From Galdieria sulphuraria (taxonomy: Eukaryota > Rhodophyta > Bangiophyceae > Galdieriales > Galdieriaceae): 64,000 nucleotides of DNA. The notes beneath the pieces were generated by a model. That model ran no database searches and was not told the DNA's origin. It worked only from the letters and a program-made list of their open reading frames with translations. Shown piece after piece: positions 19,838 through 24,147 of this stretch (the stretch's first letter is position 1; each line of letters begins with the position of its first letter). The stretch is taken from assembly GCF_000341285.1 (NCBI RefSeq), contig NW_005178447.1, positions 141,376-205,375 of the forward strand, in the 5' to 3' direction. A program made the translations under genes and the position numbers.

Positions 19838-20956
19838 TCACTCGTTCATATTTTCTTTACGATGCTCATATTTCTTACGATTGGCAATCTCAGTTGGCAA
19901 TAAAATGGCATAAATGGCACTTAAATAAGGAGTACTTACTCCATATTTATGTCCTTGTCTCACAACTGCACCCACTTGCCACTCTAATTCGGAAGGTTTG
20001 CCACCAGCAATATCACGAAACATACTTGGTGTTGCACTATCCTTCACATGATGTACCAAATAGTCAATAGATGAACGAACGACTTCTCTACCAATCATAA
20101 TTCCTCGAGCTTTAGCAACATCTACCACTTCATTCATACAATTCTCTACCAAAGCCAAAGTTTCTGGTATACTTCTCAATTGGCCCAAATTACAACGTGC
20201 TGCTGAACAAACACCGGAATAGGCTGCCATGACTGTCAACTTTCTATACATATTCTGTAAAACGTCCTGATGTATAATTAATCGAGTCTCTTTGGCACCA
20301 ACAAAGGCATATTCTAATTTCCTCAACTGCTCCAAAACAAAAGGAGCAGAATCAGTCAACATACCCGTTCCATAAATGGTAGGACTTATGTCTAATGGAA
20401 ATACAATATATCATGAATACTATTATTATTATTCCACTTTTGACCAACCTTCATGTAAAATAACTCCAGGTGTCGATATATATGCCAATACTTGAACATA
20501 ACCTCCCACCACTCGTTGTGAACCAACCACTTTGGCCAATACTTCTGGAGCTTCCACTCCGTTCTGTGTAGGAAGAGCAATGGTCTTTTCACTAAATAAA
20601 GGTAACACTGCTTCCGCTGCTGCAGCTAATTGGTCCATTTTACAAGTAAATATCACTGCGTCTACTGGAGTTGTGGCAGTCTTTAATACACTTTCTACGG
20701 TATCCCCAATACTATCTAACTGTGGATTGCAATCACCATCAATACTCTTTAAAATGATGCGGTTATCATTCTCTTGAATTGCTTTCAAGTGAGGTCCTCT
20801 AGCGATGACGTGGACATAGCTGTGTCCACACTCTGCCAACCTTGCAGCCAAATAACCACCCACACCTCCAGCACCAAATATAACCACTCTAGGTTTCTCT
20901 GTTACACTGGCGTTGTACAAGTTATTATTCGTATCTTCCTTTTGAGTATCGCCCAT
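19838..20956 (-). CDS. 2-dehydropantoate 2-reductase (ketopantoate reductase)
   Basis: Reduces ketopantoate to pantoate with NADPH in pantothenate and CoA synthesis. Exons 20956-20449 and 20391-19838 give 353 aa. The Rossmann motif FGAGGVGGYLAARL is near residue 28, the catalytic lysine is in FTCKMDQL, QNGVEA is the usual active-site loop, and the second exon carries KLTVMAAYSG and the substrate-binding Glu in PSELEWQ. The donor chosen (GTTGGT) gives a 57-base intron and an uninterrupted frame; a stop codon in the intron excludes read-through. The length is somewhat above bacterial PanE, and there is no clear organelle signal. Confidence 0.9.
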
Positions 20957-21126
20957 AACTTTTACTTTCTATCCACCAACACAACCAACTCTTTACCAAG
21001 AAAATGACAACTCCATCCTATGGACTCATTATTTCTTCTGGAAATCCTTTGGAAATGTGCATTTGTAGGTGAATTTCTTATCCAATCTTTTCAGAAACAA
21101 GAATATGTCGAGTATACTTGTATTTA

Positions 21127-21692
21127 TTAATCCAAGTCTTCTTCTCCCCATTCTAAACCACTACTGCTAGTAGCACCAAAACCACTTGGATAACTCATGA
21201 GGTTTCCAGGGTCTTCCATTTCCGATATATCAGCACTCACCAACTCCACATCAAAAATAAGCAAAGCATTAGGAGGCAATACATCACCAAACAATTCATT
21301 CATTCCATTTGAAGCGTCGGGATGCACATAAAGAGTTCGATCTTCTCCTTCTCTCATTCCCTCAATACCTTTTCTCAATGCATAAGGTGCATTGGTTAAA
21401 GATAATGTCAATGGATGGACGACTTCTCCACTTTCATCAGCAGGAGGACAAGAAAAGAATACACGACCATCTAATAATCGACCTTGGAGAATAATCATCA
21501 CATTAGAATCCTTATGAGCTGCAGGTGCCTGAGTATCTGGAGTGGTTTCTCCAGACTCCCAAACAATCTTTCCCGACTCAATCACATGAATATCGGTGTC
21601 ATTGGCAATTTCTTCAAAAAACTGATTAGCTTCCTTCCAATTGACTTGAGAAACAAACTCTTGAGCAACCTATTCTCATCATCAATACGTAG

Positions 21693-21729
<37 letters not shown>

Positions 21730-22963
21730 AAATATTCTACAACGAAAAAAGGAAATTTTTTTTCAACTTACCGACTGTAATAGACTCATTTGTCTTTCAT
21801 ATTCAGATAAAGACATTGGAAAGTCTTGTCCAGTACATGCCATTTTGATACCTTGTACTACTTGTTCATAGTCCAAACCTAAACCTGAATTGATAAGTGA
21901 TTGACCTAATGCATGTCCATAGGATTGAGCAAGCAACTTCAAGTCGACAGGAAGCCTCTTTACTCGTTCTTGAGCTGCTTCCAATTTCTTACGTGCCGCT
22001 TCTCCAACAAATAAAGAAGCTTCTGCTGCACTTGGAATAGTTTTACTTGTCGACATTCCTGAACTAGAAGATGCAGCTATTCCTCCGCCGACTCCTCCTC
22101 CACTTGAATTATTGTAATGTTTCATATTATCTGAACTCGATAAACCCATACCACCACCTGTCTTGGAAAACATCATTTTGGCAGCTTCCATACTTTCCTT
22201 CCAACGCTCGGGATCATTCAATACTTTGGAAAATTCTGGGTCAGCTTGTATCCAAGGCTGTAAAAAAGGATTGTTTTTCACTGCTTGCCTACTAGCTTCC
22301 AATTTCTCAGGATCATTTAAGTATTCTTGCATAGCTGGAGTTTGCCAGATACTTGAAAGCATCTCACTCATCGAACCCATATCTCCACTACCACTCTGCG
22401 CTCCGCCCATCAAAGACTGAACTAAATGGCTCAATTGGCTTTGATTATCTGTATTAGGAAAGGTACTTGACATTCCTAAATTCTTCATATAAGAACTCAA
22501 AGTATCTTCTGTTATTGTACCCAGTCCAACGCTAGCCGAACTGGAAGAAGCTTCTGTTCGCTTTTTGTCTTCTGAAACGGTTTCCGAAGAAGATGATACA
22601 TCCGAATGGTTTTTAGAATTATTTCCACTTGGCTTGGCTCCTACTCTTCTCACCACGTTGATAGTAACACCATCGGATACACTGTAATTGGCTAAAGGAG
22701 CATCAGGATCCAACACTTGCCCTTTGTATAAAAGTGTTTGTCTATCTGCTACAATACCTGAAACTTCCTAGTACAACAGAATGTTAGTGTTCCCTTTTTT
22801 AAAAGATGAGGGTATGTCGGTAGAACAGACGCCACCAACTTGACAAAACACTTACTGCAATCTTTTCTTGTAAAGAGTGGACAGTATAAATATTGGTAGA
22901 TTCTCCCACCGATACGTCAAACTGTTGTTTATTAAATGTCTTTACTTTGATCGTATATGCCAT
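21127..22963 (-). CDS. Ubiquitin-like / STI1-like / FKBP fusion protein
   Basis: Exons 22963-22856, 22767-21772 and 21669-21127 give 548 aa. Residues 1-79 read as a ubiquitin-like domain (YTIKVKTFNKQQFDVSV ... LLYKGQVLDPDAPLANY ... GVTINVV). Residues about 165-237 resemble an STI1/ubiquilin-type segment with repeated LNDPE, NNPFLQ and ADPEF turns. Residues about 314-395 match the helical dimerisation domain found before Mip-type FKBPs (GHALGQSLINSGLGLDYE). Residues about 420-515 form an FKBP domain (GRLLDGRVFFSC ... GIEGMREGEDRTLYV ... LPPNALLIFDVEL). Key FKBP active-site aromatics are replaced (FFS for FDS, LRKGIEG instead of a Trp), so isomerase activity is doubtful. A chaperone or shuttle role in protein quality control is inferred. 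The second intron holds a CA/TA microsatellite. Confidence 0.8.
21693..21729. repeat. Compound AC/AT microsatellite in an intron
   Basis: An AC run (21693-21710) directly followed by an AT run (21711-21729) lies in the second intron of the FKBP fusion gene. A similar TC/AC compound run lies at about 22998-23025, just upstream of the same gene. Confidence 0.9.
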
Positions 22964-23105
22964 CACAAAGACTGCACAATACAAAAAATGCTCACCACTC
23001 TCTCTCTCTCTCACTCACACACACAAAATCGGTATAACGAATAATCACACGATCAACCAACCATAATATTGTTGAGTTGATGAGATCTTTTATTCTCACT
23101 ACTCC

Positions 23106-24147
23106 TCAAGTATGCTTCTTTTTGGAATGTTGTGCCTCTTGTGAGGAACAATGTTGGCTCAATAACTGTATCCATTTCATTCCACTTATCCATGTCACTG
23201 GAAAGATAGCCAACATAACCTTCCAAGTTTTTAGAATATTCCAACTCAACCAAAACTTCACCAAGCAATACACAAAACTTGCAAGACTCATATGAAATAT
23301 GATAAACCATATAGTGGATAGACCTGTGGGCATTTGTAATGGATAAATATCAGATGTCGTTAATAGCTAGTTACCAAAAAGTATTTAGTTTTTCCGATTC
23401 CAATATATATTCAAATAATCAACATACCCAAAAGATATAAACAATCAGAGGCAATATGACCAGACCAGTAAATAAAAAAGATAAGAATATAGGAGCTCGC
23501 TTCATGGGTGGCTTGAATAAGTGTTCAATCTCCTCTTGTGGATAAAACTTCCAACTTATATCAAAGTCAAATATGCCCTTTGGTCGAGGAGTATTCTTTA
23601 CTCGATAGCTCAAGTTGACAGAATCAATAAGCAACTGATGAATACCTCGTGACACTCGATGATCACCAATCACCAACTTTGCCAAAAAATCCCCTTGTTT
23701 ACCTTCAAAGCTTTCAATAACTGAAGCATCCATCTTCTATATAAATTGAATCATAAAACAAATGCACTATAGGAAAAGCTTCAATATACTTACGACTTCA
23801 AAAAGAAGGGATCCGGTACCGCGTCTACGAGGTAAAAACAAATATTCACGTTTGGTTGACTTTTCAACAAAACTTATCCAAACTTGTTGCAAGTCTTCTA
23901 AATCAACTAAAGAACCGGTATTACTCAAATCAACCAAAATATCAAGTTGTTGACCTTCTTCAAGTGGTAAAGGCAAAGTCACTGGTAACGGATCTGAAGT
24001 GACGAGTTGTTTCTGAAATAAAGTTTGTGTACCGTGGGTATGTGATATTTCAACTCGTTGTAGGACAAACTTGTTTTCTATAGCAAAAACACTCCAACTC
24101 AACTGAAACAAGCAAAACCACCATATCCGTCTTGATAAAGAACCCAT
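23106..24147 (-). CDS. Oligosaccharyltransferase subunit, ribophorin II/Swp1
   Basis: Subunit of the ER complex that transfers the N-glycan precursor to nascent proteins. Exons 24147-23794, 23736-23428 and 23366-23106 give 307 aa, close to yeast Swp1 (about 286) and half the length of animal ribophorin II, so only the membrane-proximal part of the larger protein is represented. The N-terminus (MGSLSRRIWWFCLFQLSWSVFA) looks like a signal peptide. The family motif HLFKPPMKRAPIFLSFLFTGLVILP marks the first of three transmembrane helices; the others are in the last exon and end with a basic KKK tail. The first in-frame ATG gives the signal peptide directly. Confidence 0.85.

What the first reader, a model, noticed from the sequence alone, without database searches (positions are those of the whole stretch)
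21127..22963. Ubiquitin-like, STI1-like, Mip-type and FKBP domains in one protein
The exon chain is in frame throughout and joins an N-terminal ubiquitin-like domain to a ubiquilin-like STI1 segment, the helical dimerisation domain typical of bacterial Mip FKBPs, and an FKBP domain with altered active-site residues. I know of no named family with this order. It could be a proteasome shuttle that uses an FKBP fold as a client-binding module.
Basis: partly seen in the sequence, partly recalled or inferred. Interest (0 to 1): 0.8.

Follow-up and report, generated by a model that had tools for sequence, protein, structure and literature searches.

The report
Red-algal ubiquitin-like–chlamydial FKBP fusion protein
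A red alga carries a protein that joins a ubiquitin-like front half, of the kind that docks on the proteasome, to a rear half that most resembles a protein of chlamydia-type bacteria; the same fusion occurs in other red algae, so it is probably an old captured bacterial protein re-used in protein quality control.

Summary
Observation confirmed. One three-exon gene (minus strand, 22963-21127, 548 aa; database name Galdieria sulphuraria) encodes ubiquitin-like (UBL), ubiquilin-type STI1, Mip-type FKBP_N and FKBP_C domains, each over its Pfam cut-off. In 46 full-length sequences (this one included; 9 named red-algal species among the 50 hits listed) UBL is found in 46, STI1 in 45, FKBP_N in 44, FKBP_C in 46, UBA in none. 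Separate Dsk2, Rad23-like and Ddi1-like genes exist in the genome.

New: the Mip-FKBP half is chlamydial in type. A profile of it hits 141 of 151 Chlamydiota genomes (best 139 bits), against at most 61 bits in 785 genomes of four other phyla. Trees join it to Chlamydiota (100/99.9); both rival placements are rejected (p-AU 0.010). The isomerase pocket is rebuilt (Trp59→Leu, Ile56→Pro, Val55→Ala, 51 of 51), though Asp37 may remain. The UBL patch is kept.

Best reading: a UBA-less, ubiquilin-like adaptor, probably dimeric, whose captured FKBP fold holds clients.

The parts
22856..22963 (-). exon 1, aa 1-36 (start codon at 22963; first part of the ubiquitin-like domain)
   Evidence: splice model, GT-AG, frame; identical to P0001
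22768..22855 (-). intron 1, 88 nt, GTAAGTG...ACTAG
   Evidence: P0004 (read as G. phlegrea from its identifier) shows 16 extra residues exactly here, as if this intron were read through
21772..22767 (-). exon 2, aa 37-368 (rest of UBL, linker, STI1, linker, first part of Mip helical domain)
21670..21771 (-). intron 2, 102 nt, GTAAGTT...GAATAG; holds (AC)9.5 and (AT)9.5 repeats
21127..21669 (-). exon 3, aa 369-548 plus stop (end of Mip helical domain and FKBP domain)
22645..22951 (-). ubiquitin-like domain, aa 5-77 (spans intron 1); hydrophobic patch F10/L49/V75 at ubiquitin L8/I44/V70
   Evidence: PF00240 54 bits; patch counts
22177..22362 (-). ubiquilin-type STI1 segment, aa 172-233
   Evidence: PF23195 37.3 bits; same stretch in the genome scan, C29:163552-163737
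21571..21927 (-). Mip-type N-terminal helical (dimerisation) domain, aa 317-401 (spans intron 2)
   Evidence: PF01346 29.7 bits
21238..21519 (-). FKBP domain with rebuilt pocket, aa 419-512
   Evidence: PF00254 40.3 bits; C29:162613-162894 in the genome scan; pocket table

Best explanation
This is a red-algal protein family (UBL-STI1-Mip/FKBP, no UBA). It arose when a UBL-STI1 protein, related to ubiquilin but not ubiquilin itself, was fused in frame to a Mip-type FKBP of chlamydial ancestry. Proposed mechanism: (1) the UBL docks on UBL receptors, most likely at the proteasome, through its conserved hydrophobic patch; (2) the STI1 groove takes exposed hydrophobic helices; (3) the Mip helical domain makes the protein a dimer, so UBL and STI1 act in pairs; (4) the FKBP fold, its isomerase pocket rebuilt, holds clients or a partner without catalysing prolyl isomerisation. 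With no UBA there is no ubiquitin-dependent release of the UBL as in ubiquilins, so the UBL should be permanently free. Shown here: gene structure, domain order, conservation, replacement of most pocket residues, patch conservation, chlamydial affinity of the Mip-FKBP part. Inferred: dimerisation, loss of isomerase activity, proteasome docking, client holding, direction of transfer.
For: Domain calls over cut-off. Of 46 full-length sequences, P0001 included: ubiquitin 46, FKBP_C 46, UBQLN1 45, FKBP_N 44, UBA none at E<=0.01. Nine named red-algal species, Galdieria sulphuraria included, among the 50 hits listed. UBL patch: L8→Phe 46/46, I44→Leu 46/46, V70 Val 43/46. Pocket in 51 rows: Trp59→Leu 51, Ile56→Pro 51, Val55→Ala 51, Phe46→Leu 51, Tyr26→Val/Leu/Ile 51, Tyr82 never Tyr; Phe36 and Phe99 kept 51 of 51. 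Chlamydial affinity: Chlamydiota 141 of 151 genomes at E<=1e-3, best 139 bits; Pseudomonadota 135 of 398 at E<=1e-3, best 61; at E<=1e-8 Planctomycetota 2 of 119, best 50, Spirochaetota 2 of 120, best 54, Bacteroidota 9 of 148, best 53. Tree with Chlamydiota 100/99; with plain FKBPs added 100/99.9, rivals rejected at p-AU 0.0104 and 0.0103; FKBP_N alone 99.3, FKBP_C alone 99.9, pocket columns removed 99.3 and 100 (quick trees, SH-aLRT). Dsk2, Rad23-like and Ddi1-like genes also present. By sequence one solved chain named peptidyl-prolyl isomerase (7dek_A) matches aa 311-513 as one stretch, E 6e-7. Literature seen as passages: ubiquilin's central region binds transmembrane helices, and UBQLN1 without UBA preferentially associates with the proteasome (PMC4942676).
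Against: No structure, binding or activity datum. Asp37, a catalytic-pocket residue, is aligned as Asp in 50 of 51, although the insert beside it makes that column unsure. Ubiquitin's His68 is Ser or Asn in 45 of 46, so receptor affinity is uncertain. FKBP_N was not called in 2 of 46 and UBQLN1 in 1 of 46. The red stem is long (1.18 changes per column). The Chlamydiota rows of the trees came from the best matches, and three of the 151 genomes (G001, G003, G004) were pre-selected. The plain FKBPs used as outgroup were not one group in the best tree, and the bootstrap had not settled. Cyanobacteria were not sampled by genome search. Chlamydial Mips are closer to other bacterial Mips than to the red ones: chlamydial profile on red median 142, on others 136; profile-profile score red-chlamydial 315, red-other 171, chlamydial-other 327.
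Confidence: 0.5

Rival explanations
1. Same fusion and origin, but the protein is a folding holdase or co-chaperone, not a degradation shuttle: the UBL recruits a chaperone or other ubiquitin-pathway partner, and clients are passed to folding or membrane insertion.
For: UBA found in none of 46. In the passages read, transmembrane-helix binding by UBQLN1 does not need UBL or UBA, and UBQLN1 without UBA does not block insertion of its client (PMC4942676). Mip and FkpA proteins are chaperones (recalled; related papers seen only as a search listing).
Against: The conserved UBL patch is the surface used for proteasome receptors in canonical shuttles (knowledge; counts), and the same paper's passages say that UBQLN1 without UBA preferentially associates with the proteasome.
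Confidence: 0.3
2. The FKBP domain is still an active prolyl isomerase with a re-shaped pocket, so the protein is a UBL-targeted folding enzyme.
For: Phe36 and Phe99 are kept in 51 of 51 and Asp37 is aligned as Asp in 50 of 51. Chlamydial-type Mips have already replaced Trp59 by Phe or Leu in 39 of 39, and one of them (P0060) is named peptidylprolyl isomerase.
Against: Tyr26, Phe46, Val55, Ile56, Trp59 and Tyr82 are replaced in 51 of 51, with Pro in the Ile56 place and a six-residue insert next to Phe36.
Confidence: 0.12
3. The Mip-FKBP half is not chlamydial but an endosymbiotic (cyanobacterial), other bacterial or host FKBP that evolved fast and looks chlamydial by chance.
For: Long red stem; Cyanobacteria not sampled by genome search; chlamydial Mips are closer to other bacterial Mips than to the red ones.
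Against: A word-limited search of about 5.8 billion proteins with the piece alone gave, beside 6 red-type fragments, 10 standalone hits; the 7 best of these look chlamydial, and the 6 of those 7 put in the tree fell inside Chlamydiota. Both halves and pocket-free columns agree. Placement of red with the other Mips, or outside Chlamydiota plus the other Mips, is rejected at p-AU 0.0104 and 0.0103.
Confidence: 0.08
4. It is an orthologue of a known shuttle (Dsk2/ubiquilin, Rad23 or Ddi1) that has merely lost its UBA.
For: The UBL-STI1 half aligns with the Galdieria Dsk2 (hhalign probability 99.3).
Against: A Dsk2 with UBL, two STI1 and UBA, a Rad23-like and a Ddi1-like gene are present as separate genes, and the STI1 has a form not seen in the 7 Dsk2 rows compared.
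Confidence: 0.03
5. Gene-model artefact: two neighbouring genes joined by annotation.
For: No Galdieria transcript was seen; other splice pairings also leave open frames.
Against: Intron 2 cuts the Mip domain itself. The order recurs in the 46-sequence set, five of it with transcript-type identifiers.
Confidence: 0.01

Closest known systems
Dsk2/ubiquilin (UBL-STI1-UBA proteasome shuttle and chaperone)
   Same: N-terminal UBL, then a ubiquilin-type STI1 (PF23195), with linkers
   Different: UBA found in none of 46; a Mip-FKBP in its place; the STI1 has the form NDPEK.E.SR..I..NP, not seen in the 7 Dsk2 rows compared; a true Dsk2 coexists
Mip/FkpA-type FKBP of Chlamydiota
   Same: FKBP_N helical domain then FKBP_C; YVHP and PNALLIFDVE motifs; Trp59 already replaced; closest in score and tree
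   Different: P0054-P0060 begin with a hydrophobic leader by eye, some end in an acidic tail; the red version sits behind UBL-STI1, has a six-residue insert, and has lost Tyr26, Ile56 and Tyr82
Ddi1/Ddi2 (UBL plus another folded domain)
   Same: A UBL protein in which another folded domain stands beside or without the UBA (start of the abstract of PMC9062259 in the listing: vertebrate Ddi1/2 lack UBA)
   Different: Aspartic-protease fold instead of FKBP; a separate Ddi1-like gene is in this genome (label by eye)
UBL-STI1-only proteins P0066-P0072 (unnamed organisms)
   Same: Same special STI1 form; better scores to the red UBL-STI1 profile (E 4e-25 to 1e-14) than the Dsk2-type hits (best 4.5e-11)
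   Different: No FKBP or UBA called; P0067, P0069 and P0070 have a hydrophobic leader by eye; P0068 and P0072 lack the UBL in the sequence held; several domain scores lie under the Pfam cut-off
Chlamydial genes in Archaeplastida (Moustafa 2008, PMC2376095)
   Same: Same donor phylum, same recipient lineage (abstract)
   Different: FKBP, peptidyl and Mip do not occur in the main text of that paper or of PMC2490706 (supplements not seen); this gene is fused to a ubiquitin-pathway module and has no evident plastid leader

Membership tests
Dsk2/ubiquilin | N-terminal UBL | tested here: met
   PF00240 in 46 of 46
Dsk2/ubiquilin | STI1 segment(s) | tested here: met
   PF23195 in 45 of 46; one copy here, two over cut-off in the Galdieria Dsk2
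Dsk2/ubiquilin | C-terminal UBA | tested here: not met
   no UBA match at E<=0.01 in any of 46
Dsk2/ubiquilin | binds ubiquitin chains and proteasome | not testable with these tools
   needs pull-down
Rad23 | UBL, two UBA and XPC-binding domain | tested here: not met
   of these only the UBL is called; NCBIfam rad23 31.8 bits against cut-off 207.3
Ddi1 | retroviral-type aspartic protease domain | tested here: not met
   no such Pfam hit
Mip/FkpA FKBP | FKBP_N helical domain followed by FKBP_C | tested here: met
   both over cut-off; FKBP_N 44 of 46, FKBP_C 46 of 46
Mip/FkpA FKBP | canonical isomerase pocket | tested here: not met
   Tyr26, Phe46, Val55, Ile56, Trp59, Tyr82 replaced in 51 of 51; Phe36 and Phe99 kept in 51, Asp37 aligned as Asp in 50
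Mip/FkpA FKBP | secreted or periplasmic, leader at the N-terminus | tested here: not met
   the protein starts directly with the UBL
Mip/FkpA FKBP | homodimer through the helical domain | not testable with these tools
Gene of chlamydial origin | groups with Chlamydiota against other bacteria with support | tested here: met
   100/99; 100/99.9 with plain FKBPs; alternatives p-AU 0.0104 and 0.0103
Gene of chlamydial origin | nests inside Chlamydiota (direction of transfer) | tested here: inconclusive
   sister in careful trees; the chlamydial label needs two changes in four quick trees, as if red lay within
Gene of chlamydial origin | cyanobacterial source excluded by dense sampling | not tested
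   no cyanobacterial genome was searched; only the word-limited protein search bears on it
Gene of chlamydial origin | shared by green algae, plants and glaucophytes | not tested
   the protein search printed 50 hits, all at E<=7e-88, so weaker relatives were out of view

The most novel reading that the evidence does not exclude
The ancestor of red algae captured a chlamydial Mip, silenced its isomerase pocket, and welded it to a UBL-STI1 module to make a fourth class of ubiquitin-pathway adaptor that guards membrane-protein precursors, perhaps those bound for the plastid. The leader-bearing UBL-STI1 proteins among P0066-P0072 would be the same module sent, in algae with red-derived plastids, into the remnant of the red-algal cytosol.
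Probability: 0.17. Interest if true: 0.85.

Novelty: new variant of a known kind. Interest (0 to 1): 0.66.

Why it matters
It is a fold known from bacterial secreted proteins, re-used beside a ubiquitin-like module in a eukaryotic lineage whose early history is argued to include chlamydial gene donors. If the proteasome link holds, it shows that the UBA, thought central to shuttle factors, can be exchanged for a dimerising chaperone-like fold. It also gives the debated chlamydial contribution to algae a gene with a clear signal and a testable function, without an evident plastid leader. [quoted passage not shown]

Tried and rejected
Rejected: two separate genes (domain cut by intron 2; continuous relatives). 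Rejected: replacement of Dsk2 (Dsk2 present). Rejected: similarity to Chlamydiae driven only by lost pocket residues (holds with those columns removed). Rejected: chance domain calls (46-sequence set).

FKBP_N scan of the own genome (0 hits, but it also misses this gene, whose domain is split by an intron, so it says nothing). PDB search with the STI1 piece (three ribosomal-protein hits at E 0.55 to 0.59, chance). Rfam on 20500-23500 (0). A direct count of other lineages: one search printed 50 rows, so absence elsewhere cannot be claimed. PMC6629376 names a prolyl isomerase orthogroup, OG0001938, as a transfer candidate (passages); I could not tell whether it is this gene.

Rows and choices: of 50 hits, four shorter ones (P0005, P0048, P0049, P0050) were left out of A1. 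The pocket table used 51 rows with domain score over 300 bits, P0048-P0050, P0052 and P0053 included. In the first tree 17 red-type rows were used, 8 of them from named species; six of the seven chlamydial-type database hits were used (not P0059). L079 and L113 were dropped as duplicates of L049 and L053, and partial rows by profile coverage. Chlamydiota rows were the loci given (30, one dropped) plus four. In the second tree 11 of 33 Chlamydiota rows were left out, and L003 (long branch) was left out. The genome scan used one peptide pattern from an alignment that already held chlamydial-type rows, so it leans towards them; the profile held none.

The probability of the most novel reading was lowered from 0.20 to 0.17 for that.

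Full report
OBSERVATION. The gene lies on the minus strand of a 12-Mb, 102-contig genome. Its protein is in the databases as Galdieria sulphuraria 'Peptidyl-prolyl cis-trans isomerase Mip' (P0001, identical). Its three exons are 22963-22856, 22767-21772 and 21669-21127, with GT-AG introns and 548 residues; other splice pairings also leave open frames, and the 548-aa form is the one that matches P0001. Pfam gives ubiquitin (5-77), UBQLN1, the ubiquilin STI1-type segment (172-233), FKBP_N (317-401) and FKBP_C (419-512), each above its curated cut-off. Intron 1 cuts the UBL and intron 2 cuts FKBP_N, so the halves do not look like separate genes.

CONSERVATION. A search of about 5.8 billion proteins printed 50 hits, P0001 included (the list appears to stop at 50); 46 full-length ones were aligned. 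Scanned one by one: ubiquitin 46 of 46, FKBP_C 46, UBQLN1 45, FKBP_N 44, UBA none. Species told by name, taxid or identifier are Galdieria sulphuraria, G. partita, G. phlegrea (from an identifier), Gracilariopsis chorda, Gracilaria domingensis, Agarophyton chilense, Porphyridium purpureum, Timspurckia oligopyrenoides and Erythrolobus madagascarensis (last two checked). That all are red algae rests on my knowledge for the seven not looked up. A Griffithsia japonica fragment also matches. P0024, P0029, P0034, P0036 and P0042 bear transcript-type identifiers. Absence in other lineages was not established.

COMPANY IN THE GENOME. The same genome holds a standard Dsk2/ubiquilin (UBL, two STI1 over cut-off, UBA; C2:70238-71834), a Rad23-like gene (C8) and a Ddi1-like gene (C23) (the last two names were given by eye from the domains and the reading frame). 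The fusion is therefore additional.

ORIGIN OF THE REAR HALF. Searched alone, the Mip-FKBP piece gives 16 hits: 6 red-type fragments (P0005, P0049-P0053), seven standalone Mip proteins (P0054-P0060), then three others. A pattern scan of genomes of 84,980 species gave 21 loci, the first three being Chlamydiae MAGs; a fourth is titled Verrucomicrobiota but was drawn with the Chlamydiota phylum (the pattern came from an alignment that held chlamydial-type rows). A profile made only from eight red-type rows was then run on whole genomes. Chlamydiota: 141 of 151 hit at E<=1e-3, best 139 bits (three of the 151 were pre-selected). Pseudomonadota: 135 of 398, best 61 bits. At the stricter E<=1e-8: Planctomycetota 2 of 119, best 50; Spirochaetota 2 of 120, best 54; Bacteroidota 9 of 148, best 53.

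TREES. Maximum likelihood, 85 rows: the red-type rows are one group (100/100), and red plus Chlamydiota plus the six standalone database proteins given are one side of a branch (100/99); those six lie among Chlamydiota. Since three groups always meet at one point in an unrooted tree, plain FKBPs were added: red plus Chlamydiota remains (100/99.9). Holding red with the other bacterial Mips, or Chlamydiota with them, is rejected (p-AU 0.0104 and 0.0103). Caveats: the plain FKBPs were not one group in the best tree, though one group is not rejected (p 0.474), and the bootstrap had not settled. FKBP_N alone, FKBP_C alone, and both without 50 pocket columns give the same split in quick trees (SH-aLRT 99.3, 99.9, 100), so the unit seems to have come as a whole and pocket loss is not the cause. 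Against: the red stem is long (1.18); the Chlamydiota rows were drawn from the best hits; chlamydial Mips are closer to other bacterial Mips than to red (chlamydial profile on red median 142, on others 136; profile-profile 315 red-chlamydial, 171 red-other, 327 chlamydial-other), which I read as a chlamydial-type protein that changed fast in red algae; Cyanobacteria were not sampled by genome. Whether red is sister to or nested in Chlamydiota is unsettled.

ORIGIN OF THE FRONT HALF. The UBL-STI1 part aligns with the Galdieria Dsk2 but carries a form of STI1 (NDPEK.E.SR..I..NP) not seen in 7 Dsk2 rows. Seven proteins of unnamed organisms, P0066-P0072, share that form and score better than Dsk2 in the profile search (E 4e-25 to 1e-14, against 4.5e-11 for the best Dsk2-type hit; 21 hits in all). 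They have no FKBP or UBA call. P0067, P0069 and P0070 have hydrophobic leaders by eye, P0068 and P0072 lack the UBL in the sequence held, and several of their domain scores lie under the Pfam cut-off. The tree (26 rows, 144 columns) separates Dsk2, red and this set (100/99, 85/84, 100/98) but has no root.

POCKET AND PATCH. With a canonical Galdieria FKBP as ruler (FKBP12 position names recalled), 51 of 51 red-type rows have Trp59→Leu, Ile56→Pro, Val55→Ala and Phe46→Leu, and none keeps Tyr26 or Tyr82; Phe36 and Phe99 are kept in 51. Asp37 is aligned as Asp in 50 of 51, but a six-residue insert follows Phe36, so this column is unsure. In 39 chlamydial-type rows Tyr26 is kept in 39 and Trp59 is already Phe or Leu in 39; in 29 other bacterial rows Trp59 is Trp in 26. 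In the UBL, ubiquitin Leu8 is Phe in 46 of 46, Ile44 is Leu in 46, Val70 is Val in 43, and His68 is Ser or Asn in 45.

HOW IT MAY WORK. Shown: order, conservation, patch, pocket changes, affinity. Inferred: the rest. From passages of PMC4942676, ubiquilin's central region binds transmembrane helices without UBL or UBA, the UBA recruits ubiquitination, and UBQLN1 lacking the UBA preferentially associates with the proteasome. From the abstract and the first part of the Discussion of PMC13083955, STI1 domains bind amphipathic or transmembrane helices in a groove. A natural UBA-less protein with a Mip dimer in place of the UBA should then be a bivalent holder of hydrophobic segments whose UBL is always exposed, the rebuilt FKBP fold adding a second client or partner site. 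A pure holdase role is the main rival.

LITERATURE. Searches that found nothing describing this protein: (listings). The main texts of PMC2376095 and PMC2490706 hold no FKBP, peptidyl or Mip, and the ubiquilin family paper PMC4230246 holds no red alga or FKBP. Supplements, subscription papers and preprints were not seen.

VERDICT. Real, shared among red algae and, in the searches made, undescribed: a new variant of a known kind (UBL-type quality-control adaptors) whose rear half is very probably a captured chlamydial Mip.

Noticed in passing
P0066-P0072: UBL-STI1-type proteins without UBA or FKBP, three with hydrophobic leaders by eye and most with an acidic end, sharing the red STI1 form; organisms unnamed, possibly algae with red-derived plastids.
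   Followed up: partly
window 19838-20968, minus strand: Ketopantoate reductase (ApbA 97 bits, ApbA_C 96 bits) in two adjacent open frames just downstream of the gene.
   Followed up: partly
window 23419-23736, minus strand: Weak Ribophorin_II_C match (17.7 bits, below the cut-off of 27) in an open frame upstream of the gene.
   Followed up: no
P0004 (gene model with a G. phlegrea identifier): Sixteen extra residues exactly at the intron-1 junction, as if the model reads through the intron.
   Followed up: partly
window 21693-21729: (AC)9.5 followed by (AT)9.5 microsatellite inside intron 2.
   Followed up: no
[quoted passage not shown]
   Followed up: partly
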